Source of the DNA: a virus
Length of the DNA: 42,421 nucleotides
Strand: one strand, 5' to 3'
Virus record (IMG/VR): IMGVR_UViG_3300009376_001018
Location: 1 to 42,421 of that record
In this document: positions 23,735 to 39,995 of the stretch, piece by piece
How the letters are laid out: every line of letters starts with the position of its first letter
Position numbering within the stretch: the stretch's first letter is position 1
Made by a program: the position numbers and the translations under genes
The notes under the pieces: model-generated
The model's input: only the letters and a program-made list of their open reading frames with translations
Database searches by the model: none
Told to the model about the DNA's origin: nothing

Positions 23735-23812
23735 AGAATTTGGAGCGCCGATTGGGTCGCCGGGTGGCGTGGTTCTGATGGGGACTGCTGGTCTTCCAAT
23801 CGCGCTCTCTAT
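23735..23812 (-). ncRNA. Candidate viral ncRNA, copy 1
   Basis: Transcribed leftward from the class A promoter at 23831-23850. The start region reads CCCTCGCTTAGAATAGA on the minus strand, identical to that of copy 2. It is followed at once by a 12-bp closing stem with one bulge (plus-strand 23743-23755 with 23796-23807; minus-strand GAGCGCGATTGG with CCAATCGGCGCTC). Inside are CGCC/GGCG and a short GAC/GTC helix, giving a three-way-junction-like shape. After the closing stem comes CAAATTCTC. No ORF is present. Confidence 0.5.
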
Positions 23813-23830
23813 TCTAAGCGAGGGGGGGTG

Positions 23831-23850
23831 GGTATATCAATGTTTTGGTC
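23831..23850 (-). promoter_or_regulatory. Class A promoter, leftward
   Basis: Minus-strand GACCAAAACATTGATATACC. It faces the end of the 2098-aa gene, so its transcript would be short or antisense to that gene's 3' end; a structured RNA lies immediately downstream. Confidence 0.6.
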
Positions 23851-23864
23851 CATCAATTAGCGGG

Positions 23865-23904
23865 CAGAAAAAAACTCGCGGCGGGCCATATCGAGTTTTT
23901 TCTG
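23865..23904. terminator. Bidirectional A/T-flanked hairpin
   Basis: CAGAAAAAAACTCG pairs with CGAGTTTTTTCTG: 13 bp with one extra A, with a 13-nt loop. Each strand ends in a T-run after a GC step, so it could stop transcription from either side and insulate the leftward promoter. Confidence 0.5.
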
Positions 23905-24002
23905 ATTCTTTCCGGATTCCGGAAAACGCGAGTGCTGTTTTCGGAGTCGGTGTTTTTCGGTCGCCCGAAACCGGGGCTGAAAGTGAACATTAAATAGTGT
24001 GA

Positions 24003-24036
24003 AAGTGAAAAATCGTCGATTCCAGCCCACGAGCGA
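24003..24036 (-). repeat. 17-nt element, inverted copy
   Basis: Minus strand TCGCTCGTGGGCTGGAA (24020-24036), identical to 39970-39986 on the plus strand, and in both cases followed by a CGRCG-like step and a T-run. It may be a shared terminator or protein-binding site. Confidence 0.5.
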
Positions 24037-24165
24037 TGTTTTTCTTAATATCGAAAAGAGAAGAAAAAGCAAACTTAATCACAAACCGAATTCCGGTAAA
24101 TTACACAGAATAGGCTTTGCGAAACTTGCCGTTCAATCTTCCCGCGGTCCTTGTTTTGTTGATAA

Positions 24166-24186
24166 CCGAAACATTGATAAAGGAAA
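24166..24186 (+). promoter_or_regulatory. Class A promoter, rightward
   Basis: CGAAACATTGATAAAGGAAA, like the copy at 3163, followed by CCCCTCGGACGGTATAGG about 25 nt downstream. It probably starts a transcript covering the small ORF at 24311. Confidence 0.55.
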
Positions 24187-24310
24187 GACCCCTCGGACGG
24201 TATAGGAAGGAGTTTAACTCCGACCATCCACGACAGATGCGAACATCGCGACCGGCTTAGCGGCTGGTCTTGGTGGATAAGGTTCCACGAGGGAAGGAAG
24301 GCCAGCAAGA

Positions 24311-24511
24311 ATGCGCCGCGGCCGCGGTGACTTAGTTTCTGCTCCCATCCGGACCGGCCGTGTGAGGGAGTCACGGACAGCGCCTATCATAGCAGAAGAC
24401 GCCGCCAATGGGCGGTCTGAATTGGAACTTGATGCTCCCATTGAAACTCCATTGGAGTCGGTCGGGCAGAAGTGGCTTCGCGCCACACCCGAGGGAAAGT
24501 CCGCCATGTAA
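24311..24511 (+). CDS. Small ORF, unknown
   Basis: A 66-residue frame with a GGAAGGAAGG tract about 10 nt upstream of its ATG and a class A promoter 125 nt upstream. The product begins basic (MRRGRGDLVSAPIRTGRVR) and continues acidic (SELELDAPIETPLES). No family is recognised. Composition resembles that of neighbouring genes, but it could be part of an RNA leader instead. Confidence 0.4.
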   Translation: MRRGRGDLVSAPIRTGRVRESRTAPIIAEDAANGRSELELDAPIETPLESVGQKWLRATPEGKSAM

Positions 24512-24559
24512 AGGACCCGACTCCAAACCTAACGCGACAACCAGCGCAAGCCAAACGGA

Positions 24560-24573
24560 CTATAGGGGTGGGC
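24560..24573 (+). promoter_or_regulatory. Class B promoter for methyltransferase
   Basis: CTATAGGGGTGGGCG: the box is centred about 25 nt before GTG 24589 and carries the full GGTGGGCG extension. It places the translation start at 24589 rather than at an ATG 117 nt upstream. Confidence 0.5.
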
Positions 24574-24588
24574 GTCCCCTCGCTCGCT

Positions 24589-25311
24589 GTGACGAGGAAG
24601 TGGGAAGGTGAAGAAGGAGGCGGCGGCTACGCCAACGAGTTCCTACGGAATGCCCGAATTGAAATCCACAGCAAAAAGGACTCGAATGTGTTCTGGAAGG
24701 GAGAGGGATGGAAGACCGCTCCGAAGCGACCTCGGAACATCTGTATGCCTTACCAATGGTTATTCTCACAATCGAAAAAACTCGATTTCCCAGACCGACT
24801 TCGACCCGACCCCGAAACCAACAAGGCCACCGTCGCCGTTCTCGACTACGGATGCGGCCGAGGTCAGGACGCAATGCGATTCGGGTTTGAGAAGTATGAC
24901 CCAAATTGGTTCCCTGATTCTGTCTGGGACCCGGTTCGGTTGGAAGGTCATTATGATTTCATTTTCTGTCTATATGTCCTTGATGTGATAGAGGACCCAG
25001 AAACTCGACATGAGGTCGTTGAGGATATTCGAAGACTACTCAAGCCGGGAACCGGCGAAGCCTACATCGTCAATCGGTGTGATGAATACGCCACGATGAA
25101 GGACGGCCAGACCACACGGAAAACCGTCGATAGTTCATGGGACCTACACCGCGTCGAGGCGGCTCGGGAATATGACTGCGCGGAGATATACCGGAACTAC
25201 TTTTTCCAAGTGTGGGTGACGAAGGCTGACGGGGCGTATGTCCCTCCAAATACCGACGAACTCCCTTCGTCATGGCCGGAAACCGAGATAAGCCGTCACG
25301 AAGAAGAATAA
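24589..25311 (+). CDS. Class I SAM-dependent methyltransferase
   Basis: A 240-aa Rossmann-fold methyltransferase. Motif I is VAVLDYGCGRGQDA (about residues 83-95); the acidic ligand region is EKYDPNWFPD; motif IV-like YDFIFCLYVLDVIEDPETRHEVVEDIRRLLKPG and AYIVNRCDEY follow. The DYGCGRG plus YDP plus YVLDVIED pattern is like that of the putative methyltransferases associated with DNA phosphorothioation systems, so nucleic acid or a small molecule is a possible substrate; no NPPY or DPPY motif of amino-DNA methyltransferases is visible. GTG 24589 is chosen by the class B box; the ORF could extend to 24472. The tail hub gene follows at 2 nt. Confidence 0.75.
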   Translation: MTRKWEGEEGGGGYANEFLRNARIEIHSKKDSNVFWKGEGWKTAPKRPRNICMPYQWLFSQSKKLDFPDRLRPDPETNKATVAVLDYGCGRGQDAMRFGFEKYDPNWFPDSVWDPVRLEGHYDFIFCLYVLDVIEDPETRHEVVEDIRRLLKPGTGEAYIVNRCDEYATMKDGQTTRKTVDSSWDLHRVEAAREYDCAEIYRNYFFQVWVTKADGAYVPPNTDELPSSWPETEISRHEEE

Positions 25312-25313
25312 TC

Positions 25314-27107
25314 GTGAGCAAAGCAGTCGAGCGTTTTCATCGCATCGTTCGTGAGCCGCCTGCGGGAGTAATCGAAGCGCCGGATGGGCTCGTGGATTAC
25401 ATCGAAACGATGGCCGAGGACCCACGAAGACCGAGGACTGCAATCGCTCGCGTGACTTCTCGTCTATGGGCTGAACTTCACTATGAGCGCGAGGAGGGGG
25501 AAGCGCTACCATCGCCATCTCCTACGATTGGGATGGTGGATAAGGAGGTAATTGAGAGGCCACCACATTACCCGCAATTCTGGGGGCTCGGATTCATACC
25601 ATCACCGGGAACAATCAACGGATGGAATCAGGACACGGTGGTCACAGATTGCTACACTTCACTTTCAGTTCCACGACCGTTTGACCCCACACTTCACGGG
25701 ACGATTGCTGGTGCAGTCGGATTCGGATGGATGGGGTATCAAGGCAACCCGTTCCCAGACAATTACGACATCGTGACTCGAAGGGGAGGAGGACCACGAG
25801 GAGGATTCTCATGGACCACGGGTCCGACCGAGGGGAATTACCCAACAGGCGTCCTACCATCTCCGACCTTCGACCTCGGAAAAATCGGATTCAGTAATGG
25901 CGGGTGGAATCCCGAGGGACTGAAATGGACGAATCGACCGAGGCGAGTTCGCCTGCAAGGTCTTCGGAATGGATGGGCTCATCGCGTCATGTTCGCGCGC
26001 TCGCGGAAAGTGATGTTCAGGAATCTGTATGGTCCGGTCAGCGAAGATGAGGCGACGCCGAAAGCACCGACCGTTGTTCTGAATGGAAGTTTGGGTCTGA
26101 CGGGAGTTCGCTCAGTTCGAGTTCGGCGGGCGTTTAACGCTCCATCAATCGTCAGTATTGACCTCAATAGCGTCGCGGGGAGGAGGTCTGGTGTAGCGAA
26201 ACTCGGTGATACGGTGCAAGTTTTCGCGACCCCGAGAAATTGGGCGTTCCCACCTTGCGTCTTCACAGGATTCGTTTCCGACATAGAGGAAGATGGGGAT
26301 AAGGTTTCGATTATTGGGCTCGATACCCTCGGCTACCTCACGAAAGATGTGATTCTCACGAATCCGAATTATCAGGAAAGTGACGCCGGCTCGGTAATTC
26401 GGGACATCGTTGCGAACTCGTCATACGGTCCGCCCATTGGAAAAATCTCGACCGAAACGCGGGTGATACTTCCAGCCAATCTCGACCTATCAGGAAAAAC
26501 TCGATTGGCGGCGGCTCAGACAGTTTTGGATATTGTGAACAATACCCCGAACCGTGTCCTCCTCCAAGCCGGAGCAGACGGCTTCATCAATCTCATACGA
26601 CTCCGAGAAATCGACGATGCGAATCTCACTCCTTTCGTCGCAGGTCGAGTTCCCAAGACGACTGTTCCCCAAGACCTCTATCCATATTCCATCATGCGCG
26701 AGGAGGGCGACCTTGACTTCCCGAACAAAGTCACCGTCAAGAATCCTGACCTCAATATCGAAGTCACCGAACCTCGTGTCGAGCCCACGAATCCAATCCA
26801 TATCGTCGTCAAGGAAACTGCGGCAACGGACGAATCGACCGCTCGATTCTTTGCACAGCAAATACTCTCGCAACATGGAACATCGAAAGCGAGATGGGTA
26901 GTGACGGCAATACCCGAGCGCTTCGACATCATGCCCGGCGACATCATTGACTTTGCATCGAAGGAAGGTTCTCTCGCCGGACGCCAAATGGTGTTCAATG
27001 TGGAGTGGACTTACTCGACAGGAGGCTCAGAAATGAATCTGAATGTTGGCCGTCAAGCGGCCGACCTCGTGACTGCGATGAGATATGCGACCGGCGTTTC
27101 CCTGTGA
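25314..27107 (+). CDS. Tail hub / baseplate protein
   Basis: A 597-aa protein starting at GTG 25314, 2 nt after the methyltransferase stop; an in-frame ATG at 25272 would overlap that gene. The C-terminal 330 residues have the pattern of gpD/gp27-type tail hubs: a first beta domain (SLGLTGVRSVRVRRAFNAPSIVSIDLN...LGDTVQVFATP), a Phe-Thr-Gly-Phe-Val turn with dependent strands (VFTGFVSDIEEDGDKVSIIGLDTLGYL), a helix-rich part, and a final domain FDIMPGDIIDFASKEGSLAGRQMVFNVEWTYS. The N-terminal 270 residues are Gly/Trp/Pro-rich and unrecognised. It probably forms the hub under the tail tube. Confidence 0.65.
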   Translation: MSKAVERFHRIVREPPAGVIEAPDGLVDYIETMAEDPRRPRTAIARVTSRLWAELHYEREEGEALPSPSPTIGMVDKEVIERPPHYPQFWGLGFIPSPGTINGWNQDTVVTDCYTSLSVPRPFDPTLHGTIAGAVGFGWMGYQGNPFPDNYDIVTRRGGGPRGGFSWTTGPTEGNYPTGVLPSPTFDLGKIGFSNGGWNPEGLKWTNRPRRVRLQGLRNGWAHRVMFARSRKVMFRNLYGPVSEDEATPKAPTVVLNGSLGLTGVRSVRVRRAFNAPSIVSIDLNSVAGRRSGVAKLGDTVQVFATPRNWAFPPCVFTGFVSDIEEDGDKVSIIGLDTLGYLTKDVILTNPNYQESDAGSVIRDIVANSSYGPPIGKISTETRVILPANLDLSGKTRLAAAQTVLDIVNNTPNRVLLQAGADGFINLIRLREIDDANLTPFVAGRVPKTTVPQDLYPYSIMREEGDLDFPNKVTVKNPDLNIEVTEPRVEPTNPIHIVVKETAATDESTARFFAQQILSQHGTSKARWVVTAIPERFDIMPGDIIDFASKEGSLAGRQMVFNVEWTYSTGGSEMNLNVGRQAADLVTAMRYATGVSL

Positions 27108-27130
27108 AACGCTCGAAATGTCCCAATCAT

Positions 27131-27159
27131 TACCTTCCCCCCCTTTAGGGGGGAAGGTA
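27131..27159 (+). terminator. 12-bp hairpin after tail hub gene
   Basis: TACCTTCCCCCC pairs perfectly with GGGGGGAAGGTA around a 5-nt loop, 24 nt after the tail hub stop. It is the strongest hairpin in the window and separates virion genes from replication genes. Confidence 0.55.
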
Positions 27160-27390
27160 TTCCAAAGAATCCTTCTGTAGCCTACGGTGATACCCACATA
27201 GTATCGTTAAGGTGTGTCTGTGATAGAGATTGGACCATCTGGTTCATTTAGGTGGGGGTGGAAGGACATATTGCCCGGGGGACATACATTCCACCGCCCT
27301 GTGTCTGCAAGCACGGAGCGGGGGGCGCTGGGCTCCGGGCCGGCGGGACCTGTAGCGGACTGCCGCCGATTCTTACCCAGCGTCCCGAAC

Positions 27391-27405
27391 TTATCAAGGT
27401 GGGCG
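27391..27405 (+). promoter_or_regulatory. Class B promoter for helicase gene
   Basis: TTATCAAGGTGGGCG is centred about 25 nt before ATG 27419. Confidence 0.5.
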
Positions 27406-27418
27406 CGTAGGGTAGGAC

Positions 27419-29155
27419 ATGGCGTTAGTGCGAATCAACATTCCATCGAAGCATCCGCTTCCGGATTTATGGCGAGAGATTCAGCCAGATTTCCCGATGC
27501 CGAGCCCGAGGAAGTATCAGGATGATGCGCTGAATGTAATCTATCACGCGCTCAAGAATGACGACTTCGATAACATCATCATCCAAGCACCAACAGGAAT
27601 CGGCAAGTCTGCGATTGCGATGACGGTCCAACGCCGATTCAAATCGGCATACCTCCTATCTCCGTCACTCGGCCTGACCGACCAATACCTCGCGGACTAT
27701 GGACGACATCTCGCAGAAGTCCGGGGACGCTCGAACTTCCCTTGTTGGGTGCGCTCGGGAGATGCGGACGGCGCACCTTGCTACGGGATAAAGCGAACCT
27801 GTCCTCACACGAAGCGCGACGACCCGTGTCCCTACTACGAACAGAAGTTCAAGGCGGCGGACGCTCGATTGACGCTGAGTAATCCAGCCTACTTGTTCAG
27901 GGTGATTCAGGGGAATTCGAATTTCGACCAACGGGAGTTCGCCATCATTGACGAAGCACATAATCTCGAATCGTTCTTCATGGGATTGATGGAAGTCAAA
28001 ATCAACGAGCGCGATTTCGCTACCGTCGGTTTGCGACAGTCGTTGCCCGTCATCTATCACGCGGCAGATTGGGAGCCTTCCATCAAGGCCCTTCATCAAG
28101 GAGCAATCGCGCTCGTGGATAAGGCCGAACTCGATGAAGATGAGAAGACCCGCGAACGAGCGAGAAAAATTCTCCGCCGCACTTCGACTTTCATCGAACT
28201 TCTCCAACGACCGAATGAAATGGTCGTCGAAACCGGCCGCGACAAACTCGGTTCCTATGTTCGTGCGCGCCCTATTCGGGTCAATAGGTTCGCCGGAGAG
28301 TATCTTGAGCAGATTGCTGGGAAACGAATTTTCCTCAGCGCGACAATTCTCGATGTCGAAACCTTCCTCACCAATCTCGGAATCGAAAATCAACGAACGC
28401 TCTATGTGAATGTGAATCGGTCCCCATTCCCATCGGAGAACTTCAACATCGTCTATGCACCATGCGGACCCATGTCTTACGGCAAGCGCGACGCGAGCCT
28501 CAAGAAGCAAATCAAGGCAATAGCCGCCATCATGGAAAAGAACACCGAGCGCCGAGGCGTTATCCTCCCGCACACGCATTACATCAGAAAGGCGCTGGTG
28601 GATGGGCTGACCGACCTCGGGTATGGAGATAGGATTCTCACGCATGGGTCTGACGCTCGGGGCAGACAAACCGCGCTCGATGTGTTTTTCAAGAGCCCGA
28701 GGCAAGACCTCGTTCTCATCTCAACCTATGTTGGAGAAGGATTCGATTTCAAGGGAACGCTGGCCGAGTGGTTGGTCATCTGTAAAGTTCCGTTTCTCCC
28801 AATCAAGGGCGACCCTCAGATTGAACAGCGGATGATTGAGGATGAAATGTCGTGGCGTCGTGACCACGAGGGAACTCCGGCTTGCCCCCACGAACCGCCC
28901 AACAAGTATTCGAACGGCCTATGTTCGTCGTTCAATTGCGCGAAGCCGTGCATGAAGTGGTATGATTTGCAGACCGCGCTCAAATTGGTTCAGGGCGCTG
29001 GGAGGATTATCCGAACGAGCGACGACAAGGGCGACCTGTTTATTCTCGATGGTTCGTTCTCACGATGGTCAAGGTGGAATACTCATTTACTGCCTGCATG
29101 GTTCAGGAATTCAATGCGTGAAGTTCCGAATTGGTTGAAGCGAGTGATTGGATGA
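27419..29155 (+). CDS. XPD/Rad3-like Fe-S helicase
   Basis: A 578-aa superfamily 2 DNA helicase of the XPD/Rad3/DinG type, 5'-3' polarity expected. Walker A is APTGIGKS (57-64). Four cysteines (109, 121, 128, 137) in the segment after motif Ia match an Fe-S cluster domain. The DEAH box is at 178-181 (IIDEAHNLESFF). Motif V is TYVGEGFDFKG and motif VI is QGAGRIIRTSDDKG with a DG...SRW end. A second Cys-rich stretch (CPHEPP...CSSFNCAKPC) sits between motifs V and VI and is unusual. It may act in replication fork opening or repair. It is the first gene of the replication module; its ATGA overlaps the next gene. Confidence 0.85.
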   Translation: MALVRINIPSKHPLPDLWREIQPDFPMPSPRKYQDDALNVIYHALKNDDFDNIIIQAPTGIGKSAIAMTVQRRFKSAYLLSPSLGLTDQYLADYGRHLAEVRGRSNFPCWVRSGDADGAPCYGIKRTCPHTKRDDPCPYYEQKFKAADARLTLSNPAYLFRVIQGNSNFDQREFAIIDEAHNLESFFMGLMEVKINERDFATVGLRQSLPVIYHAADWEPSIKALHQGAIALVDKAELDEDEKTRERARKILRRTSTFIELLQRPNEMVVETGRDKLGSYVRARPIRVNRFAGEYLEQIAGKRIFLSATILDVETFLTNLGIENQRTLYVNVNRSPFPSENFNIVYAPCGPMSYGKRDASLKKQIKAIAAIMEKNTERRGVILPHTHYIRKALVDGLTDLGYGDRILTHGSDARGRQTALDVFFKSPRQDLVLISTYVGEGFDFKGTLAEWLVICKVPFLPIKGDPQIEQRMIEDEMSWRRDHEGTPACPHEPPNKYSNGLCSSFNCAKPCMKWYDLQTALKLVQGAGRIIRTSDDKGDLFILDGSFSRWSRWNTHLLPAWFRNSMREVPNWLKRVIG

Positions 29156-29529
29156 TTGACGGATATGGTGGCCGCGACAATCCGTGGTCCGAGCGGACGA
29201 TGACCCAGACCGAAGCGAACAACGAATTAGGTCGGCTTCGGACTATTCCCGAATTCGTTCTCGGCCCCGGGAATACCTTCGAGGTATTTGGAGTCGAGCG
29301 CACAATCGAACCCAGACCACTACGCGTCTATGGCTATGGGACTTACATGAAGTGCCTCGGGTGCGGACGAGTGGGATTGATGGACGCGCTCATGTTCAAG
29401 CCGGATTCATGGCCGAATGTCGCCATCATCTGCGGAACCATGACTGCGGGATGCGGAGTGTTCTGGGGGATGATTCCCGAGCCACCCGAAGATGTCGTTT
29501 GGACCTACCGCGAGCCCGATGCTGATTGA
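29152..29529 (+). CDS. Putative zinc-binding protein, unknown
   Basis: A 125-aa protein whose ATG overlaps the helicase stop (ATGA), so it is co-translated with it. It contains MKCLGCGRVG (about residues 66-75), an early CxxC knuckle, and AIICGTMTAGCGVFWG about 25 residues later, a possible second half of a zinc ribbon. Trp- and Pro-rich ends. Function is unknown; the coupling suggests a helicase partner. Confidence 0.5.
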   Translation: MIDGYGGRDNPWSERTMTQTEANNELGRLRTIPEFVLGPGNTFEVFGVERTIEPRPLRVYGYGTYMKCLGCGRVGLMDALMFKPDSWPNVAIICGTMTAGCGVFWGMIPEPPEDVVWTYREPDAD

Positions 29530-29533
29530 TTGC

Positions 29534-29683
29534 GACGGCCCCTACCCTCCGCCACTCCCCCCATCGGGGTCGTCCGTATATCCGGTTGCCCGGTGTCTTG
29601 CCTGTTTAACGCGGTTCTCGCGTCCTGAGCCCCTACCCTCTCAGGAAATCCGTGTAATGAGCAGGTGTCCCTGCCCCCATTAC
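29534..29683 (+). terminator. Cluster of three hairpins
   Basis: GACGGCCCC/GGGGTCGTC (9 pairs, one G-U; 29534-29574), CCTGAG/CTCAGG (29624-29645), and GTAATG with an inner GCAGG/CCTGC closing with CATTAC (29654-29683). The first and second both carry the sequence CCCCTACCCTC in their loops. Together they fill the 250 nt between the helicase operon and the next promoter and probably end or process that transcript. Confidence 0.45.
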
Positions 29684-29740
29684 AGGGGAGCAGTCCTCCG
29701 TTAATAAAGGTTTCTATTAAGAAATTCGTTTTATTGAGGG

Positions 29741-29763
29741 ACCGAAGCATTCATATACTAAAG
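29741..29763 (+). promoter_or_regulatory. Class A promoter, rightward
   Basis: CGAAGCATTCATATACTAAAG, then CTCCTCCCCGGTATATGG. The core is about 24 nt from ATG 29779, so the mRNA would be leaderless. Confidence 0.65.
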
Positions 29764-29778
29764 ACTCCTCCCCGGTAT

Positions 29779-30093
29779 ATGGGCGACCTTAATCGACACA
29801 ATTACCGCGGCGTGGTTTTGACCACGGAGCAGACCGAGGCTTTGCCTTCGGGTGATGTTCATCTCGTCTGCCCTGCTTGGACTGACTCGACAGTTCTCTA
29901 TCAGGTTCGCCCTTGCACAGACCAGCGCCACCATGACCATGCTCGCGCTCACGGGCGCGATGGTTGCCCCGGCGGCGCCTTGACTTATGTCTGGGGAGTG
30001 TGCGATGTCTGCGGCGAGAACTCGTGGGTTTCCTACAATGTCTTGACGGACGCTACTCGCTGTGAGGCTCACGGCGTAGGGCCTGTTGCTTAA
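29779..30093 (+). CDS. Cys/His-rich zinc protein
   Basis: A 104-aa protein with several possible metal ligands: CPAW, CTDQRHHDHARAH, CPGG, and CDVCGENSW followed by CEAHG. The GVCDVCGENSWVSYNVLTDATRCEAH part looks like a C-x2-C...C-x2-H finger. ATG 29779 lies at the expected start of the class A transcript. No function is recognised; it may be a regulator, given its own strong promoter and its place before the replication operon. Confidence 0.55.
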   Translation: MGDLNRHNYRGVVLTTEQTEALPSGDVHLVCPAWTDSTVLYQVRPCTDQRHHDHARAHGRDGCPGGALTYVWGVCDVCGENSWVSYNVLTDATRCEAHGVGPVA

Positions 30094-30104
30094 GACGGTG
30101 GGCG
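30089..30104 (+). promoter_or_regulatory. Class B promoter for AAA+ gene
   Basis: CTTAAGACGGTGGGCG, centred about 27 nt before ATG 30120. The stop codon of the upstream gene is within the box. Confidence 0.55.
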
Positions 30105-30119
30105 CGCTCGCTTTCTGTA

Positions 30120-32102
30120 ATGGTTGAGGTCCGACAGTCGGCAGACTCCGGCACACGGTTCGAATGCGACATCGAAGGCATCTCGGTGAAACTCGATTTC
30201 TTGGCCGGCGCCAAAGGTCGGCTCGACTTTGCGGTGGAGTTCGACGGTGAGCCGAAGGGCAAGGTGAATCTGCTCAGCCAGCACAGCATCAACCGGATGC
30301 CGACCGACGGGCTCGGGAAGGATGAGCGAAAGCAATTCCAACAGGATATGCTCTCGGTCGGCGTCGCAATTCGTGACCAGACATTCGTCCCGGCTCCGAA
30401 GGCGAAGCGCGAACTCATCGAGGCTTCTTCCTACACAGGAATGGATTCGACCCTCGGGGCTATTGACGAGAATAGCATCAACGAGTTTCTGGAATCCGAC
30501 GATTTGTTCGACAGGGTGAATGAAATTCTCCACGAATCCCGCGACCAGCCATTCGTCGGAGATGACGCCAATCTCCTCCTGACCTTCCTCGTGATGTTGT
30601 CGTGCAAATCTGGCGCGCCGCTGAACCTTGAGATGATTGGTCAGTCTGCTTCGGGGAAGACCTACATGACGCTCACCGCGCGCAACGGATTTCCGCGCTC
30701 GATGGTGATGGTCCTCGCGGGTGCATCTCGTGAAGCGCTCAAGTATGACTACGATGAAGTCGATGATGATGGGAACTTCATCGTCAATGTCGAAGGGAAG
30801 TGCATCGTGGTGTTGGAGAAGGACGAGTCGGAAGCGTTCATCCGGAAATTGAAACCGCTCATGTCTGGCGACGATAGCGAACTCGTTTGGAAAACTCCAC
30901 AGAAGAACGAGATAACCGGCGAAATCGAAACTCGGGATTTCATCATCCGAGGCCAGCCATCATTCATCACACTCACGACGCGCAACCCGAGGCAACAGGA
31001 ACAAATCACGAGAACGCTGATGATGACGCCGGACCATTCGAGCGAGAAGGTCGCGGTCGTTGTCGAGAATCAATTGCTGTCGAAGGCTCGGCCGGAACAG
31101 TATCAGATTCACGCTGATGTGAATCTCCTTCAAGCGTCGATGCTGAGCCTCAAGCAGTATCAGGTTCGCAACATATTCGCCCCAATCATGGCCGAGTTCT
31201 TTCCAGCGAAGTCGGCACAGCACCAGCGAGATATTTCGAAGGTTCTCGGCATCATCGACGCCATCACGATTCTGCACCAGCGACAACGGCCAATCGAGAA
31301 ACTCGATGACGGCGAGTTTCTTCTGAGTTCCATCGAGGATAACATCATCGGGCTGATTCTGGCCGACCTCGTTCTTCGAGCGTCGCTGTCCGGAGTTCCC
31401 GATGGGTCGTGGGTCGTCTTCACGGAGATGCTGAAAATGGAGGAGGCCAAGCGCCCGCTGACGACAGACAACATTCTCCAATGGCTTCACATTCATGCGT
31501 TCTCATCGACGAAGAACGCGCTCATCGAGAAGCACCTTCCGACGCTGGAAGACTGTGGGCTCGTGGAGGTTGCCCGTCGTGGTGGTGGTCGTGGAGGCGG
31601 ACGGAAGACATGGCGCATCGTGAAAACTCGAACCGGTCTGATGGAAACCTACGCCCTCTCTCCCCTCTTTGTCGAACACGCGCGCGACACGCTCGCGGAA
31701 CTCATCGGCGAGTTTTCCGATGTTCTGGGCCGAGCCGGCAAACCAGCCACCGGGCGCGCGTTAGTGAGTGGAGAAGCGGCGATTCTGAAATCGCTCGGTT
31801 GCTCGACAAAGGATGAGTCGGCAATTTTCCGAAGCCTGTTCCTTCCACAGTATCTCCGCCCGAAAAACTCGGGAAGAACCCTGTGGGAGATAATTGGCGC
31901 CAATACCCAGCGCAAGATGTTGTTCAGCGGGAAGGCGTGGCTCGATTCGACAATCGAGTCTGACGCGATTGAGAATTTGGAAGCGCGACACGAAGTCCGT
32001 GAGAAAGTTCGACAAGCGATAACCTCAGAACATGATGACCAATCATGGGAAGCGTTGGCCGAAGTCCATCTCGATGAGTTCGAGGGGGACCGTCCCGCTT
32101 AA
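30120..32102 (+). CDS. AAA+/RecA-like ATPase, putative replicative helicase
   Basis: A 660-aa protein with a P-loop at residues 172-181 (MIGQSASGKT), a helix after it, SREALKYD, a Walker-B-like strand CIVVLEKDESEAFIRKLKPLMSGDDSEL (about 228-255) and a sensor-like strand QPSFITLTTRNPRQQEQITRTLMM with several Arg that could act as fingers. The C-terminal third contains a winged-helix-like segment (LTTDNILQWLHIHAFSSTKNALIEKHLPTLEDCGLVEVARRGGG). The overall order (N-terminal domain, ATPase, winged helix) suits a hexameric helicase loader or MCM-like helicase, but canonical MCM motifs are not clear. It is probably the main replication ATPase. Confidence 0.55.
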   Translation: MVEVRQSADSGTRFECDIEGISVKLDFLAGAKGRLDFAVEFDGEPKGKVNLLSQHSINRMPTDGLGKDERKQFQQDMLSVGVAIRDQTFVPAPKAKRELIEASSYTGMDSTLGAIDENSINEFLESDDLFDRVNEILHESRDQPFVGDDANLLLTFLVMLSCKSGAPLNLEMIGQSASGKTYMTLTARNGFPRSMVMVLAGASREALKYDYDEVDDDGNFIVNVEGKCIVVLEKDESEAFIRKLKPLMSGDDSELVWKTPQKNEITGEIETRDFIIRGQPSFITLTTRNPRQQEQITRTLMMTPDHSSEKVAVVVENQLLSKARPEQYQIHADVNLLQASMLSLKQYQVRNIFAPIMAEFFPAKSAQHQRDISKVLGIIDAITILHQRQRPIEKLDDGEFLLSSIEDNIIGLILADLVLRASLSGVPDGSWVVFTEMLKMEEAKRPLTTDNILQWLHIHAFSSTKNALIEKHLPTLEDCGLVEVARRGGGRGGGRKTWRIVKTRTGLMETYALSPLFVEHARDTLAELIGEFSDVLGRAGKPATGRALVSGEAAILKSLGCSTKDESAIFRSLFLPQYLRPKNSGRTLWEIIGANTQRKMLFSGKAWLDSTIESDAIENLEARHEVREKVRQAITSEHDDQSWEALAEVHLDEFEGDRPA

Positions 32103-33316: not shown

Positions 33317-34216
33317 ATGCCGAAGGCGTCGAACAAAAAGCGGAAAGCCGACTACGCTACGCTGATTGAATCCTGTGATGATGGAGTGAGCATGGCTGAG
33401 GCCAAACCACTTCGCCACATGAAACTACAGGGGTTCCCCGGCGGAGGCAAATCGCACTTCGCGCTCACCTTCTTCGCGAACGAATGCGAGGGGCGAAAGC
33501 CAGCCGAGTGTCTGATGACCATCATCGACTGCGACCTTGAAGGCCAGCGCGACCTCGTGGTTCGCGAGGACATTCTGCCGAAGCCTCTCCGACCGAGGTT
33601 GAAGCGTAAGGTCTGCACCGACCCCGAAGAAGTGAATGCAATCGCGCTCGCTTTCATCGACCTCCACCGCCAGCACGCTGAGAAGCACCCTGATGGCGTG
33701 CGCGTGATGTGCATGGAGAACGAAGGCGCGTTCTATCTCGCCTGCCGCGACTACTACTCATTCGAGGTTCATGGAAAATCCGAGGCCGACCTGCTCCTGT
33801 CCCGACAGGCTCAGGCAATCAGCGAAGGTAAGAAGACGCTCCCGCTGTTCGCCGAGGGTCAGATGCACTCCTACAAAGTCATTAACAAAATGTTCTTCCA
33901 GCCCTACGAACGGCTCAAGGTTGCCGCTGAGATGTATGGCTATCACTTTCTCTCAACCGTGCTGATGCGCTCCTACACGGAGAACTTCGGAACGGCCAAC
34001 GAGAACAAGGTCGTCGCGAGCGCTGGACGCGCAGACATGACCGACCCTCTATTCGATTGGATAGTCGAACTCACTCAGCAACAGCGCACGGTGAAGGGCG
34101 AATTGAAAACTCGCCACATCGCCGAAATCAGAAAGTCGCGCTCGTGCAAACCCTTCCGAATCGAGAACCCTAACCAAACGAAATTCTGGAACGCCGTTGA
34201 GAAGCAATCGTCATAA
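33317..34216 (+). CDS. RecA-like/Sak4-type ATPase
   Basis: A 299-aa P-loop ATPase. Walker A is GFPGGGKS (39-46); a DCDLEGQ strand follows after about 30 residues and a Walker-B-like hydrophobic strand VRVMCMENEGAF around 130-142. The length and simple ATPase core fit the AAA_24/Sak4 group of phage recombination ATPases, which assist ssDNA annealing together with SSB; an archaeal RadA would have extra N-terminal helix-hairpin-helix motifs that are absent here. It lies between SSB and a RecB-like nuclease, a natural recombination trio. Confidence 0.7.
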   Translation: MPKASNKKRKADYATLIESCDDGVSMAEAKPLRHMKLQGFPGGGKSHFALTFFANECEGRKPAECLMTIIDCDLEGQRDLVVREDILPKPLRPRLKRKVCTDPEEVNAIALAFIDLHRQHAEKHPDGVRVMCMENEGAFYLACRDYYSFEVHGKSEADLLLSRQAQAISEGKKTLPLFAEGQMHSYKVINKMFFQPYERLKVAAEMYGYHFLSTVLMRSYTENFGTANENKVVASAGRADMTDPLFDWIVELTQQQRTVKGELKTRHIAEIRKSRSCKPFRIENPNQTKFWNAVEKQSS

Positions 34217-34224
34217 ACGGGTGG
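34212..34224 (+). promoter_or_regulatory. Class B promoter for RecB-like nuclease
   Basis: CATAAACGGGTGG, about 31 nt before ATG 34247; a GAAGGTGA ribosome binding site is between them. Confidence 0.45.
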
Positions 34225-34246
34225 AACAGCCCGAAGGTGACGACAA

Positions 34247-35449
34247 ATGAAACTGCCCTACATCTCAGCATCTCGATTGAAGACGGCACAGGACTGCCCG
34301 CTGGCCTACGCTCTCCGCTACGACCCTCCCAACGAGGAGGCTGTTCAAGTCAAATGGGCTGGCGAGCATCGCGATAACCTACAGGCCGCGAAACTCGGAG
34401 GCAACATTCACGACGCATTGGAGGAGTGGCGCCGACCGAACCCGAAGACGGGGAAGGTTCGACGCCCGGTGTTCAAGGAGTTAATCAGGCTCTATGACGA
34501 AGCGTGCGCTAAACAGGAGATTAACTTCGACCTGTATAACGACGGGAAGGATATGTTGCGTCGCTGGTTCGACAAGCGGAACGCCGGCGCGATGAAGACC
34601 AAAATCCTCCATGTCGAACAGCAGTTCGGTTCGCATAAGTCGCCCCATGTTCTATCCAACGGCGTTCCCGTTTTCGGATTCATCGACCTGACGCTCGAAC
34701 ATGAGGACGGCACTATCGAACTCGTGGATTACAAGACCCAGCGCGCTCCCATCAAGCAAGAAGAAGCCGACTCGAATGTTCAGGCTGGAATCTATCTGAC
34801 GGTTGCTCGCGAACTGTGGCCGGACCGGCCGCTCAAATTCACCTTCGACCTTCTCCGCTACGGGACGGTCACAACCTATTGGACCGACGAGAAAATTGCG
34901 TCGTTCAAGGATTGGCTCAAGACGAAGCAATCGTGGATTGAATCTATTGAGGAGCCGCGAGCCACGATTGGACCTGCGTGTAAATGGTGTTCGTTCATCG
35001 ACATTTGCCCGAAGGCCCAGAAACTCCTACAGGCCGGCTCGTGGGAAGTCGTCATCGGTGAGAACGAACCGACGGACGACGACGAGATGCTGGACCAATT
35101 GCAGTCCATCAAGGCGGCGAAGGCAATCCTGTCGAAGAAGCAGTCGGCGCTCGAAGGCATCATCAAGAACGAATGGTTCGACCCTCACGCTCCCGCGGCC
35201 GAACGAGTTCGGATAACCGAACGCTATGCGGTGAAGTGGGATGACCGTTCGAACACGGTATATCTCCCGTCGGAGGTCCAGCGGCTCGTGCCGCCCGGAG
35301 TGTTCGGTCAGATGGCTGGGCTCTCCAAAGCGAAGGTCGAACGGCTCCTTCCTGTTCTCCCCGCAGATGTGGCCGACGCGGTTCGCGACTCCGCAGTATT
35401 GAAACCCTTCAAGGCGCTGACCATTAGACGGCGCCAAGATGCAGACTGA
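34247..35449 (+). CDS. Cas4/RecB-like Fe-S exonuclease
   Basis: A 400-aa PD-(D/E)xK nuclease. Motifs: N-terminal Cys17 (SRLKTAQDCPLAY), GGNIHDALEEW with His55, GFIDL with Asp147, ELVDYKT with Asp161 and Lys163, QAGIY (Gln179, Tyr183), then C-x2-C-x5-C (Cys245, 248, 254) in CKWCSFIDIC. One early and three late Cys form the Fe-S cluster typical of Cas4, AddB and Dna2 nucleases. About 130 further residues follow, longer than Cas4. It likely resects DNA ends in recombination with the SSB and the RecA-like ATPase upstream. There is no CRISPR array nearby. Confidence 0.8.
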   Translation: MKLPYISASRLKTAQDCPLAYALRYDPPNEEAVQVKWAGEHRDNLQAAKLGGNIHDALEEWRRPNPKTGKVRRPVFKELIRLYDEACAKQEINFDLYNDGKDMLRRWFDKRNAGAMKTKILHVEQQFGSHKSPHVLSNGVPVFGFIDLTLEHEDGTIELVDYKTQRAPIKQEEADSNVQAGIYLTVARELWPDRPLKFTFDLLRYGTVTTYWTDEKIASFKDWLKTKQSWIESIEEPRATIGPACKWCSFIDICPKAQKLLQAGSWEVVIGENEPTDDDEMLDQLQSIKAAKAILSKKQSALEGIIKNEWFDPHAPAAERVRITERYAVKWDDRSNTVYLPSEVQRLVPPGVFGQMAGLSKAKVERLLPVLPADVADAVRDSAVLKPFKALTIRRRQDAD

Positions 35450-35768
35450 CGATGAAAGAGTGGTCCCATCGTCAAAATACGGCAAGCGCAAATTTGGTCG
35501 GATGGGAAAAACCGACGGTCGGTCGGTCAAACGACTGTGGCGCGCGATGATGAATGCGGGTGCCGTTTCACCCGACGGCTCTCCGCTGACGACCGGTGAG
35601 ATTGTTCAGTTAGACGACCAGCCGTTTGAGATTCACCGGCTCACGAATCACTTAGCGAAGAAGCCCCACCTGTTCGAATGTGTGGGCTCGGAACGGGTCG
35701 CCGGCATCGACGGCAGAACTCGCTACCCTCAGAAATTGTGGCTCGCCCGGGCGGACGCCTACGACTGA
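35439..35768 (+). CDS. Small basic protein, unknown
   Basis: A 109-aa protein overlapping the nuclease gene end by 11 nt. It contains a Lys/Arg-rich N-terminus (YGKRKFGRMGKTDGRSVKRLWRAMM) with a helical look and a C-terminal part (LTTGEIVQLDDQPFEIHRLTNHLAKKPHLFECVG...LWLARADAYD). No family is recognised. A DNA-binding role is only suggested by charge. The tandem hairpins follow its stop immediately. Confidence 0.45.
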   Translation: MQTDDERVVPSSKYGKRKFGRMGKTDGRSVKRLWRAMMNAGAVSPDGSPLTTGEIVQLDDQPFEIHRLTNHLAKKPHLFECVGSERVAGIDGRTRYPQKLWLARADAYD

Positions 35769-35828
35769 AAAACTCGATTTGGTCCAGCGAGTTTTTGCGA
35801 AAAACTCGAATCGTCCGCGCGAGTTTTT
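35768..35828 (+). terminator. Two tandem AAAAACTCG/CGAGTTTTT hairpins
   Basis: AAAAACTCG (35768-35776) pairs with CGAGTTTTT (35788-35796), and a second copy (35800-35808) pairs with 35820-35828; the same 9-nt arms also allow alternative pairing between hairpins. Each ends in a T-run, as in an archaeal terminator, and they follow directly on a stop codon. Confidence 0.6.
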
Positions 35829-36005
35829 CCTATTGGCGGCAATAGCCCCTGAAACTCAGCGCGTTTTCGAGCCCGATTTCGCGTCTGAAACGCTCTCAGT
35901 TTCGAGCGGTTCGAATCCCCAGAATGGCTATCGGCGTCAGAAGTGAAACTATTGGCGCCCATAACACCCCCCGAAACGAGTCGAAAATGGGGATTTGACC
36001 CTTAT
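35829..36005. other. Intergenic tract after terminators
   Basis: About 180 nt without a gene. It holds TATTG-GCGG-CAATA (35831-35844) and a set of GAAAC/GTTTC-rich partial repeats up to 35920. No promoter is evident until 36006. Confidence 0.4.
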
Positions 36006-36040
36006 TTCCATTGATATAGTGAAAACATTGATATACTAAA
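36006..36040 (+). promoter_or_regulatory. Tandem class A promoters
   Basis: TTCCATTGATATAGTGAAA (36006-36024) and AAAACATTGATATACTAAA (36022-36040) overlap as a near-duplication. A C-run and CATTATACAG follow. Likely drives the four-gene run starting at 36079. Confidence 0.6.
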
Positions 36041-36078
36041 CCCCCCTTCCATTATACAGAAGGAACGGGGGGAAACTG

Positions 36079-36225
36079 ATGGGGAACTACAACATGAGGG
36101 CGCCGAGGAGCAGGGTTGGCGCATCTGAGGTAGCAACCGCAGTCCCCCGTTCCGACTACGCAACAACCGAGGAGTGGTTGGTCGCACGACGCGCCTACAT
36201 GAACTCGGTGAACAGGAGGAACTGA
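36079..36225 (+). CDS. Small ORF, unknown (48 aa)
   Basis: Starts after a GGGGGGAAACTG tract, 45 nt from the class A promoter. Product begins MGNYNMRAPRSRVGASEVAT and ends in a helical, basic stretch (TEEWLVARRAYMNSVNRRN). It is the first of four very short, closely packed ORFs. Function is unknown. Confidence 0.5.
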   Translation: MGNYNMRAPRSRVGASEVATAVPRSDYATTEEWLVARRAYMNSVNRRN

Positions 36226-36227
36226 AT

Positions 36228-36353
36228 ATGAGCCAGACAGTCTGCCTAACAGGCAACACCATGCACGCAACAATAACGAACGACGAGGATGCCGAGAACG
36301 GCCTTTCGGTCGCCGCGGTTCTCGTGATGATGAACGGAACAAGGTGCGTTTGA
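36228..36353 (+). CDS. Small ORF, unknown (41 aa)
   Basis: ATG 36228 is 2 nt after the previous stop. Product MSQTVCLTGNTMHATITNDED continuing to a hydrophobic helix (GLSVAAVLVMMNG). A single short membrane helix is possible. The stop touches the next ATG. Confidence 0.4.
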   Translation: MSQTVCLTGNTMHATITNDEDAENGLSVAAVLVMMNGTRCV

Positions 36354-36542
36354 ATGAGCGCTGAGGACAGGGCTCGCCGGATAATCGCCGGCACCGCGAC
36401 CGACCTCGAAATCGACTTCGACTTCACTTGCGACGAGGCAGACGAAGGCGACATAATCGGCTACTGCGATTCATGCGCTTACCCCCACACTTGCGGGGAC
36501 GGCGACCAATGCCGCGGATGCGGAACATGGGAGCGATACTGA
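36354..36542 (+). CDS. Small zinc-ribbon protein (62 aa)
   Basis: Starts directly after the preceding TGA. It has an acidic first half (DLEIDFDFTCDEADEGD) and a Cys-rich end, YCDSCAYPHTCGDGDQCRGCG, with C-x2-C and C-x5-C-x2-C spacing that could bind one or two zinc ions. Function is unknown. Confidence 0.5.
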   Translation: MSAEDRARRIIAGTATDLEIDFDFTCDEADEGDIIGYCDSCAYPHTCGDGDQCRGCGTWERY

Positions 36543-36715
36543 TGAGCGACCTCGATGTTGAAATCAATTACCAAATCGACCTGTGGCGAGAACGGCGCGC
36601 ACTTGCACGCCACGAGAGGGACCTGAGAATCAGGGCTCGAATGGAATCCACCATAGCACTCAACCCCGGAATGTCTGATGACGAAGCATACGAACTCGTC
36701 ATGCTGACTTTCTGA
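36542..36715 (+). CDS. Small helical protein (57 aa)
   Basis: ATG overlaps the previous stop (TGATG). Product is charged and helical (YQIDLWRERRALARHERDLRIRARMEST) with a C-terminal YELVMLTF. No family recognised; it could be a DNA-binding or coiled-coil partner. Confidence 0.45.
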   Translation: MSDLDVEINYQIDLWRERRALARHERDLRIRARMESTIALNPGMSDDEAYELVMLTF

Positions 36716-36729
36716 GTGACCGGCCCCTT

Positions 36730-36743
36730 CATAACGGTGGGAC
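36730..36743 (+). promoter_or_regulatory. Class B promoter for PCNA gene
   Basis: CATAACGGTGGGAC, centred about 25 nt before ATG 36758. Confidence 0.5.
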
Positions 36744-36757
36744 TCAGACGACTATCC

Positions 36758-37558
36758 ATGTCGCTGACGCCCAACAGTCAGGTTTCACGAAGCGGAGTCA
36801 TCCGTGCCGAAGCCGGCTCGCTGGCTACTGTTCTCCGCCGGTCGGTTCTCGATAATCCATCGAATCCGGTCCGGGCTCTTTTCACCGAGGACGGCGTAAG
36901 CATCTGGACCCACGACATAGCGAAGACCGTTCAACTGATTATGACGAACGCAAGCGTGAATGGATTGAAGGTCAAGGAGCCCGTCATCATGCTCATCGAC
37001 CCGGACTCGATGGCCGGACTTCTCGATACGAAGTTCAGTCGCGAGATGATTCAGATTGAGGTTAAGCCGAACGCGCCGCTCGTCGTGAAGTCACGAACCG
37101 GTGGCGATGTTGTCTATCATCCAGCGGATGAAGACGATTGCTTCATCGTTCCCGACCATTGGATTATGCCGAAGGACTCGAAGGGATGGTTCCTCGTTCC
37201 GATGAAGAACAACGAACCATGCACGACACGGGTCACAGTCAGCAAGGAGGAGATGAGTCGCGGACTCGTGGATATGCTCGTTGCAGGTGCGCCCTATGTT
37301 TCGTTCGACTTCCAGCCGGGCGGCTCGACCTGTGCCTCCGGTCATTGGGGCGCGAAGGGAAACCGCGCGTCCTCGCCCATCGACGCAAAGGTCGAAGGCT
37401 CGGGCATCACACTCAACTTCACAGAAAACCTCGGGGGAATCATCTCCCGAATGGACGGCAACACCTTCGTTGTGCAGAAGCACCACGACACGCCGTTCGT
37501 GATAATCGAATCCGGCTCGACCGTAGTGGTCGCGACCGAAGCACAGCGCGAGGGATGA
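36758..37558 (+). CDS. PCNA-like sliding clamp
   Basis: A 266-aa protein whose length and pattern fit an archaeal sliding clamp. It starts with AEAGSLATVLRRSVLDNPSNPVRALFTEDGVSIWTHDIAKTVQLIMTNAS, like the PCNA opening (helix then F-x-x-x-G-x-x-hydrophobic and D-x-x-x-V). IMLIDPDSMAGLLD and a C-terminal PFVIIESGSTVVVATE resemble the clamp's interdomain and final strands. It stands beside primase and polymerase genes. No PIP-binding feature can be tested by eye. Start ATG 36758 is fixed by the class B box, not the TTG-like upstream extension. Confidence 0.6.
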   Translation: MSLTPNSQVSRSGVIRAEAGSLATVLRRSVLDNPSNPVRALFTEDGVSIWTHDIAKTVQLIMTNASVNGLKVKEPVIMLIDPDSMAGLLDTKFSREMIQIEVKPNAPLVVKSRTGGDVVYHPADEDDCFIVPDHWIMPKDSKGWFLVPMKNNEPCTTRVTVSKEEMSRGLVDMLVAGAPYVSFDFQPGGSTCASGHWGAKGNRASSPIDAKVEGSGITLNFTENLGGIISRMDGNTFVVQKHHDTPFVIIESGSTVVVATEAQREG

Positions 37559-37561
37559 ACG

Positions 37562-37798
37562 ATGGAATTTCCAGAAACGAAGAAGCGGTTCAGCCGCGAG
37601 GAAGCAGAACAAGCGTTAGGGATAGACGAGGAGGAGCGCGCGGTAATCAAGGCCAGCGTCAGCATCGAACTCCTGTTGGCGCACGCGGGAATCACGGACG
37701 ACCAAATCGACCTCGCCTACACGGCGCGGCTCAAGAATCAGTTAGCAGATGTTCGCGACGCATTTCAGGAACTCGTCGGTGACGAGGATGAGGTTTGA
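37562..37798 (+). CDS. Small acidic helical protein, unknown
   Basis: A 78-aa protein 3 nt after the clamp stop and overlapping the primase start by 11 nt. Highly charged and helical (EEAEQALGIDEEERAVIKASVSIELLLAHAG...LADVRDAFQELVGDEDEV). The tight packing suggests a primase or clamp accessory factor; no family is recognised. Confidence 0.5.
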   Translation: MEFPETKKRFSREEAEQALGIDEEERAVIKASVSIELLLAHAGITDDQIDLAYTARLKNQLADVRDAFQELVGDEDEV

Positions 37799-38957
37799 CG
37801 CCGGACAGATGGAGCGCGTTCTCCACCATCTCGGTTTCAATCACTATCCCCGAACGCTCGGGAATCCACGACAAGAATTCGTGCTGACGACGGATGAAAT
37901 CTATCCGCGGCTCGTGAAGTGGGACGGGCTCTATCCGTGCTTCATCTCGACAGCCGGCTACGACGACCTTCGATGGGAGGTCGGGAGAAAGCAATCACCG
38001 GGTCGTATCATCCATGAGATGACCTTCTTCGATTTCGACCACGACACCAAGCCGGAGAATGCGTTCGCTGATGTTCAACGGCTGAGCCAATTTCTGCGCT
38101 CGATGGATATTGCACATTGGGTTCAGTATTCCGGCTCGAAGGGCTATCACTTGTTCATCGTCCACGAACCGACGAAGTTCCGGTTCAGTCATCTCGACGG
38201 AAGCGCGGATGCTCTCAAGCATCTCATCAATCAGACTCAAACCCACCTTTCGAAAACGCTCGGGCTCAACACGCTGGACGAACAAACAACCGGCGACCCA
38301 AAACGCCTGTGTCGAATTCCATTCACGCGTCATGTGAATCGCCACCTTGAGGCGAGCGGCAGATTTGCCGTTCCGATTGAGGTCGAAAAACTCGACGAAA
38401 TCTCTCACGAGGAGGTAGTGAAGTCAGCCTATCGGCCCCAATACTTCCTCCCAAGTATCGTAGGTAGGAAAATCACGCTCGCAGAATTCATCGACGAGTT
38501 AGGCATTCGACTTCACGCGCCTGAAACTCAGATACGCGACATCATCAACGCCGAGTTCGATTTCGATTCGAGCGCAAAACAGTTCCTCGCGAGCCTCGAT
38601 TACCGATGCCCGGGTGTCGTCAATGAACTCAAGCGACGCAACCCACCGCACAGCGCGCGAGTTTTCACAGCCCTGTTTGCGAAGACACTCAATTACACGC
38701 CAGCACAGTTCGAGGAGATATGGTCGGAGATTGGGGAGGAGGTCGGCTATGTTGATTTACACAACAAGGAGCATCGGCTCTATCAGATTTCAACCATCTT
38801 CGACAATCCGAAGTATCGGTCATTTCCAAACTGCTCGACGCTGAAAACAAAGGGCTGTTGTATAGGGGAAACTTGCCCGAGATGGAAAACCTTCATGGGC
38901 GCAGAAGCAACCCCGCGAATTGAACGAAAGTGGCGGAGTAAGCATGGGTGCGAGTAA
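37788..38957 (+). CDS. Archaeo-eukaryotic primase (PriS-like) with Cys-rich C-terminus
   Basis: A 389-aa AEP-family primase making RNA or DNA primers. Catalytic Asp pair is in MTFFDFDHD (about 78-86), followed by the SGSKGYH nucleotide-binding motif (115-121; Ser-x-His/Lys type) and RLCRIPFTRH (about 180), all typical of PriS. The C-terminal 45 residues contain NCSTLKTKGCCIGETCPRW, a cysteine set like that of the PriL C-terminal or CHC2/PriCT Fe-S or zinc modules, so small- and large-subunit functions may be fused in one chain. ATG 37788 is chosen since translation from 37749 would lie wholly inside the previous gene. The XPF gene overlaps its end. Confidence 0.8.
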   Translation: MRFDAGQMERVLHHLGFNHYPRTLGNPRQEFVLTTDEIYPRLVKWDGLYPCFISTAGYDDLRWEVGRKQSPGRIIHEMTFFDFDHDTKPENAFADVQRLSQFLRSMDIAHWVQYSGSKGYHLFIVHEPTKFRFSHLDGSADALKHLINQTQTHLSKTLGLNTLDEQTTGDPKRLCRIPFTRHVNRHLEASGRFAVPIEVEKLDEISHEEVVKSAYRPQYFLPSIVGRKITLAEFIDELGIRLHAPETQIRDIINAEFDFDSSAKQFLASLDYRCPGVVNELKRRNPPHSARVFTALFAKTLNYTPAQFEEIWSEIGEEVGYVDLHNKEHRLYQISTIFDNPKYRSFPNCSTLKTKGCCIGETCPRWKTFMGAEATPRIERKWRSKHGCE

Positions 38958-39786
38958 GAAGACGAGATATGGCGACCTTCTCGAAAACTCGGATGCGCTC
39001 AGCGAGTTTTTCTCCACAGCCAACCTCGGGAAAAAACTCGGTTTCTATCGACATCTCACTCATCTGGTGGAGAAGGAAGAAGACTTCGAAAAACTATTGA
39101 CGGCAATAGACCCATACGACCTGCGCGAAAAACTCGGGAAGTCAATCATCGACGAAATGGTCGGCCGACATTTGAGAATCGACCATCGCGAACATTGGGC
39201 GATGCTCGGTTATCTCGGCGACCTCGGATTTGAAATAGTCCATCTCGATACCGGGACAGGAGATGTGGCGTCGAAGCGAGTTTCGATTGAGCGGAAGGAG
39301 GACGACCTCGTTCCGAGTTTGTTCGACGACCGCCGACTCAGACAATTGGGAGCGATGCGAGAGGAAGCCGAGTTCTCGTATCTCGTCGTCACGAAGTCCT
39401 ACTCAGAAATCAAGGCCGGCCTCGCGGAGCGCGACATCTGCGACACGGTGTTCATCTCGTTCATCGCCAGCCTGTGCGCCGTTGGCTATCCGCCTGTCTT
39501 CATTGACGACCGATTCGACGGCTCGGCGCTGATGGGGAAAATAATCAGCAAGATTGAGGACGACAAGCACCGGCTGTATATCCCTCGGCCGCGTGGCGCG
39601 AAGCCATCCGACTACAGGAACGCACTCATCGAGGCACTTCCAAAAGTGGGATTGAAAACTCGCCGGAAGTTAGTCGAGCGTTTTGGTTCGGTAGCGAATC
39701 TGAGCCAAGCAAGCGTCGATGAATTGGCGTCAATAGAAGGAATCGGCAAGGTCACAGCGCAACGCATTTTCGACTCGCTGAACTGA
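38944..39786 (+). CDS. XPF/ERCC4-family nuclease with HhH
   Basis: A 280-aa ERCC4-type structure-specific nuclease. The active site VSIERKEDDLVPSLFDDRRL (about 113-131) carries the ERKxxxD motif. The C-terminal region (LIEALPKVGLKTRRKLVERFGSVANLSQASVDELASIEGIGKVTAQRIFDSL) is a tandem helix-hairpin-helix DNA-binding domain. The helicase part of full-size archaeal Hef/XPF is absent. It would cleave branched DNA such as forks and flaps. ATG 38944 overlaps the primase stop by 14 nt. Confidence 0.9.
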   Translation: MGASKKTRYGDLLENSDALSEFFSTANLGKKLGFYRHLTHLVEKEEDFEKLLTAIDPYDLREKLGKSIIDEMVGRHLRIDHREHWAMLGYLGDLGFEIVHLDTGTGDVASKRVSIERKEDDLVPSLFDDRRLRQLGAMREEAEFSYLVVTKSYSEIKAGLAERDICDTVFISFIASLCAVGYPPVFIDDRFDGSALMGKIISKIEDDKHRLYIPRPRGAKPSDYRNALIEALPKVGLKTRRKLVERFGSVANLSQASVDELASIEGIGKVTAQRIFDSLN

Positions 39787-39822
39787 ATCGAGTTTTTCGC
39801 GCTCAGGGCGGGAAATTGATAG

Positions 39823-39845
39823 ACCGGAACATTCATATACTGAAG
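39823..39845 (+). promoter_or_regulatory. Class A promoter, rightward
   Basis: CCGGAACATTCATATACTGA, then GGACCCTCGCTTAGAATAGA, an initiation region of which 17 nt are identical to that of the leftward promoter at 23831. It begins 36 nt after the XPF stop. Confidence 0.65.
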
Positions 39846-39857
39846 GACCCTCGCTTA

Positions 39858-39995
39858 GAATAGAAGTGAAGGCCGACATTGGGTCCCCGTAGCCCCGGCA
39901 CACTTCGACCCAACGAAGGGCAATTCGGACATTCGGACACCGTTGCCGCCGACACCCTTCACCAAATCTTCGCTCGTGGGCTGGAAACGGCGTTT
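39858..39995 (+). ncRNA. Candidate viral ncRNA, copy 2
   Basis: About 100-135 nt starting at the AGAATAGAA of the class A promoter. A 7-bp closing stem (GTGAAGG 39866-39872 with CCTTCAC 39956-39962) encloses two hairpins: TTGGGTC (39879-39885) with GACCCAA (39907-39913), and GGCAA (39919-39923) with TTGCC (39943-39947). After the closing stem comes CAAATCTTC, then the 17-nt element and a T-run at 39991. There is no ORF with a credible start in either direction. The architecture matches copy 1 at 23735-23812 although stem sequences differ. Confidence 0.55.

What the first reader, a model, noticed from the sequence alone, without database searches (positions are those of the whole stretch)
23735..39962. 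Candidate new family of viral structured RNAs with covarying closing stems
Two loci, 23735-23850 (minus) and 39823-39962 (plus), share CCCTCGCTTAGAATAGA at the same distance after a class A promoter. Each is then followed at once by a long closing stem, whose sequence differs between loci (GAGCGCGATTGG versus GTGAAGG) but whose pairing is kept, and by CAAATYYTC after the stem. Inside each, two smaller helices are possible. Conserved flanks, variable but paired stems and absence of an ORF suggest a structured ncRNA family with unknown role, perhaps regulatory or decoy-like.
Basis: partly seen in the sequence, partly recalled or inferred. Interest (0 to 1): 0.8.

Follow-up and report, generated by a model that had tools for sequence, protein, structure and literature searches.

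The report
Structured RNA genes of archaeal viruses
One of the two spots flagged in this virus, apparently one of archaea, is a real small folded RNA whose stem letters have changed in matched pairs in related viruses while its loop stayed almost fixed; the second spot mainly shares its promoter, and a larger folded RNA gene elsewhere in the window (about 310 bases) suggests these viruses carry several movable RNA genes of unknown function.

Summary
The shared 17-mer is real but is mostly promoter: it lies at a fixed distance from the TATA box at 33 distinct sites in the window and relatives, some before protein genes, so it does not define an RNA family. Locus A (23810-23743, minus) is a structured RNA. 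Three related IMG/VR contigs (one distinct sequence) carry the same 40-nt loop (39/40 identical) inside a helix in which 6 of 12 pairs changed on both sides and a one-base bulge is kept. Locus B has a 7-bp closing helix, but thermodynamics do not favour it, a model built on A does not find it, and no relative was found: a candidate transcript, not a second member. A stronger example lies elsewhere in the window: about 310 nt (5983-5674, minus), conserved in two relatives with 16 covarying pairs of 81, at a different gene neighbourhood in each virus. Best reading: these archaeal-type tailed viruses carry exchangeable structured RNA genes with their own promoters that act in trans; target unknown. 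No Rfam match. Expression and host were not tested.

The parts
23835..23845 (-). TATA-like box of locus A (AAACATTGATA)
23811..23822 (-). Promoter element CTCGCTTAGAAT just before the inferred start site (about 23810) of locus A
   Evidence: fixed offset 23 from TATA
23796..23807 (-). Locus A, 5' arm of the closing helix (GAGCGCGATTGG)
   Evidence: covariation; fold z -3.5
23756..23795 (-). Locus A, 40-nt conserved loop with two small hairpins
   Evidence: 39/40 identical in L047/L019/L150 copies
23743..23755 (-). Locus A, 3' arm with one bulged base (CCAATC-G-GCGCTC)
   Evidence: covariation with the bulge kept
39827..39837 (+). TATA-like box of locus B (GAACATTCATA)
39850..39861 (+). Promoter element CTCGCTTAGAAT of locus B; inferred start about 39862
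39866..39872 (+). Locus B, 5' arm GTGAAGG (weak)
   Evidence: 34/2000 shuffles, pair probability about 0.012
39956..39962 (+). Locus B, 3' arm CCTTCAC (weak)
5674..5983 (-). Larger structured RNA of the same promoter class (TATA at 6016-6006, minus), outside the given coordinates
   Evidence: 81 pairs, 16 changed on both sides in 3 viruses; stops in all frames in window and L150

Best explanation
Locus A is a small non-coding RNA gene with its own archaeal-type promoter. The transcript starts about 3 nt before a 12-bp helix that joins its ends and holds open a 40-nt loop whose sequence is kept almost letter for letter. The helix is a replaceable clamp: its letters drift, its pairing stays. The loop is the working part and most likely binds a host or viral partner (a protein, or an RNA by base pairing), so the RNA acts in trans as a regulator or sponge. 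It belongs to a wider set of structured RNA genes that these viruses carry under the same promoter class and place between different genes. Shown: promoter geometry, covariation, loop conservation, different neighbourhoods. Inferred: transcription, action in trans, binding by the loop. Locus B is another start site of that promoter class and not the same RNA.
For: Promoter element at a fixed offset and start site from leaderless genes. Helix of A: 6 of 12 pairs changed on both sides, 4 unchanged, slid controls 0-1. Arms differ at 16 of 25 positions, loop at 1 of 40, Fisher p 4e-8. Fold of A better than all 200 shuffles. The loop domain lies after the 2098-aa gene in the window and before a prohead protease gene in L047, and is absent from the matching locus of L021. 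The 310-nt RNA (16 covarying pairs) sits in three different neighbourhoods. Further RNAs of relatives have stems with matched changes.
Against: The relatives of A are one distinct sequence, so covariation rests on one independent comparison. No RNA data. No partner or target found. No obvious terminator right after A. Promoters of this class are not in general enriched for long stems at their start. The domain of L047 may be part of a longer RNA or a leader.
Confidence: 0.62

Rival explanations
1. The structures are 5' leaders of viral mRNAs that protect or regulate the message in cis.
For: Locus B and the 40008 promoter point at the clamp-loader gene starting at 40198; L047's copy of the domain precedes a protease gene on the same strand; the 310-nt RNA precedes an HNH-like gene in the window.
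Against: Locus A points into the 3' end of a gene on the other strand with no gene of its own behind it; the same RNA precedes different genes in different viruses.
Confidence: 0.2
2. The shared sequence is only a promoter element, and the stems are chance or by-products of base composition.
For: The 17-mer is clearly a promoter element; B's stem occurs in 34 of 2000 shuffles; long stems are not enriched at start sites overall.
Against: For A, matched changes on both sides with a kept bulge and a frozen loop; for the 310-nt RNA, 16 covarying pairs against 0-2 in slid controls. It remains a fair reading of B.
Confidence: 0.1
3. The conserved piece of A works as DNA (protein-binding or recombination site) and not as RNA.
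For: An inverted repeat also forms in DNA; the domain and a 22-25-base piece behind A (shared with L016) have moved between genome positions.
Against: The arms vary freely in sequence, unlike a recognition site; the domain lies just behind a promoter at a fixed start site in the window and in relatives.
Confidence: 0.08

Closest known systems
GOLLD and ROOL, large structured RNAs of bacteria and phages (PMC12286853)
   Same: Non-coding, highly structured RNA genes carried by tailed viruses or mobile elements; function unknown
   Different: Locus A is about 70 nt and the other RNA about 310 nt; no Rfam match to any family; virus of archaeal type
Phage-encoded small regulatory RNAs (review PMC12197685)
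   Same: Small RNAs with their own promoters, thought to act in trans on the host
   Different: No target known here; no long antisense match in the virus itself; archaeal-type TATA promoter
Morons of phages (independent genes inserted between others; own knowledge)
   Same: Own promoter, inserted between conserved genes, different places in related viruses
   Different: Here the cargo is RNA, not protein
Archaeal box C/D and H/ACA guide RNAs (own knowledge)
   Same: Small archaeal RNAs with an end-closing stem and internal loops
   Different: No C/D boxes in A; no ACA box kept next to the stem in relatives

Membership tests
Any Rfam 15 family | Score at or above gathering cut-off | tested here: not met
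   No match in the window at gathering or at E<=1; none in 11 relatives; 5600-6020 only a chance-level 13.2-bit match
One RNA family comprising loci A and B | Both recognised by one sequence-structure model | tested here: not met
   Model R1 of A: at most 3.2 bits in 39700-40210
RNA family of locus A | Compensatory changes in the stem with a conserved loop in relatives | tested here: met
   only one distinct related sequence
Box C/D guide RNA | Boxes C (RUGAUGA) and D (CUGA) | tested here: not met
   Sequence of A read directly: no UGA in 23810-23743 (-)
tRNA / tmRNA | ARAGORN match | tested here: not met
   None in the window
Phage-type trans-acting small RNA | Expressed transcript and a target | not testable with these tools
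   No transcriptome; no host genome reachable
Magroviruses (viruses of Poseidoniales) | MCP / DNA polymerase B kinship with named magroviruses | tested here: inconclusive
   Relatives encode PolB, portal, prohead protease as magroviruses do (PMC10160649); the MCP has only a 26% hit in the phage collection

The most novel reading that the evidence does not exclude
A group of archaeal tailed viruses carries an exchangeable set of structured RNA genes under one promoter class ('RNA morons'), built from modules that move between scaffolds and gene positions, and including at least two undescribed RNA families in this window (locus A and the 310-nt RNA).
Probability: 0.5. Interest if true: 0.8.

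Novelty: new variant of a known kind. Interest (0 to 1): 0.62.

Why it matters
I found no paper in the searched library on structured RNAs of this virus group, although that library is only part of the literature. Conserved, covarying RNAs with their own promoters would point to an RNA-based layer of virus-host control in uncultured viruses, and give exact targets (a 40-nt loop, a 310-nt fold) to look for in existing marine metatranscriptomes.

Tried and rejected
Exact 16-mer scan of IMG/VR: 12 hits in unrelated contexts, taken as chance. Core of A in GTDB genomes, deposited phages and E. coli: no real match. Looser scan for A and a scan for B: the same three contigs, and none. Complement of A's loop as an antisense target: only itself (output partly cut). 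General enrichment of long stems at start sites: not found; fold z-scores of 33 non-coding promoters only modestly below 53 coding ones, -0.96 against -0.32, p 0.006. I first read a convergent gene behind L047's copy of A; the ORF map shows a same-strand protease gene instead. HNH-like gene as a specific partner of the RNAs: it is a conserved gene near the capsid gene in most relatives, mostly without an RNA before it. No host genome could be reached, so host rRNA and tRNA targets were not tested; Rfam control genomes gave no usable handle. A first run of the promoter scan was off by one base and is replaced.

Full report
What the window is. A 42.4-kb virus record with an HK97-type capsid gene (5-1066), tail genes, an XPD-like helicase, a PD-(D/E)XK nuclease, an HHH nuclease and an RFC-type clamp loader. 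The capsid protein has 80 listed relatives in IMG/VR at 66-99% identity, several on records of about 80 kb; one relative encodes family B DNA polymerase, portal and prohead protease. The gene set and the TATA promoters point to an archaeal tailed virus, perhaps a magrovirus; the host is not proven.

The shared motif. CCCTCGCTTAGAATAGA occurs exactly twice. Over the window and its relatives, its last 15 bases are found at one fixed offset from the TATA box: 33 distinct sites at offset 23 with up to 5 mismatches, 1-6 at the other offsets tried. Leaderless genes of the same promoter type have their ATG at offset 34-35. So the motif is the stretch just before the start site, and the RNA begins within its last 2-3 bases (inference). 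Protein genes also use it (L179).

Locus A. A 42-nt piece of its interior is 97.6% identical in relatives whose surrounding DNA aligns only in the promoter. Aligned without gaps, the loop differs at 1 of 40 positions and the arms at 16 of 25, yet 11 of 12 pairs remain, 6 by changes on both sides, and the one-base bulge stays in place; sliding the partners destroys this. A covariance model finds only these copies in 1.7 Mb of held sequence. The three contigs are one distinct sequence, so this is one independent comparison, though a strong one. In L047 the domain is part of a longer region before a prohead protease gene; L021 has that region without the domain, which suggests a module that can be gained or lost.

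Locus B. Same promoter, 7-bp arms, but the predicted ensemble does not form them, the model of A does not recognise it, and no relative is known. It may be a separate RNA or a leader of the clamp-loader gene.

A larger RNA outside the coordinates. Promoter 6016 (-) of the same class is followed by about 310 nt that two relatives keep at 69-80% identity, with 14 helices, 81 pairs, 16 of them changed on both sides, no shuffle of 500 as high, slid controls 0-2. There are stops in all frames in the window and L150. It lies before an HNH-like gene in the window, a tail-tube gene in L150 and a prohead-protease-like gene in L017: it does not follow one gene, as expected of an RNA acting in trans.

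Other RNAs of relatives. A domain ATAACTCCGTTGAAAGG...CGGACCGCGG in three relatives is closed by stems that change in matched pairs; L018/L021 and L177/L154 give further examples. As a whole, however, promoters of this class are not enriched for long stems at the start, so these are individual RNAs and not a rule.

Known families. No Rfam family matches, and the literature searches gave no report on structured RNAs of this virus group (the library is incomplete).

Verdict.

Noticed in passing
window 5674-5983 (-); L150 11147-11466 (+); L017 962-1252 (+): About 310-nt conserved, covarying non-coding RNA behind a promoter of the same class, in three different gene neighbourhoods; no Rfam match.
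   Followed up: partly
L018 4300+, L151 9510+, L016 627+, L096 1435-, L155 7348-, L158 9825-, L025 5777-: Transcripts that start with an 8-bp hairpin, several followed at once by a second hairpin; sequences differ, layout looks alike. Possibly one fast-changing RNA family.
   Followed up: partly
window 24036-24014 (-) and 39970-39992 (+): TCGCTCGTGGGCTGGAAWCGRCG followed by a T run occurs twice, behind locus B and upstream of locus A; possibly a terminator; not found in relatives.
   Followed up: partly
window 23738-23715 (-) and L016 minus strand behind its promoter at 616: A piece of about 25 bases behind locus A matches the coding end of a methyltransferase gene in L016, which suggests past recombination.
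   Followed up: partly
window 40044-40190 (+): CTGCCGGTGCAAATCCGGAC, a T-loop-like hairpin, is identical over 20 bases in L022 and L154/L024.
   Followed up: no
window 3199-3440 (+), 24203-24440 (+), 29679-29480 (-): Further non-coding stretches behind promoters of this class; folds not clearly better than shuffles; the last has a 67% relative in L151.
   Followed up: no
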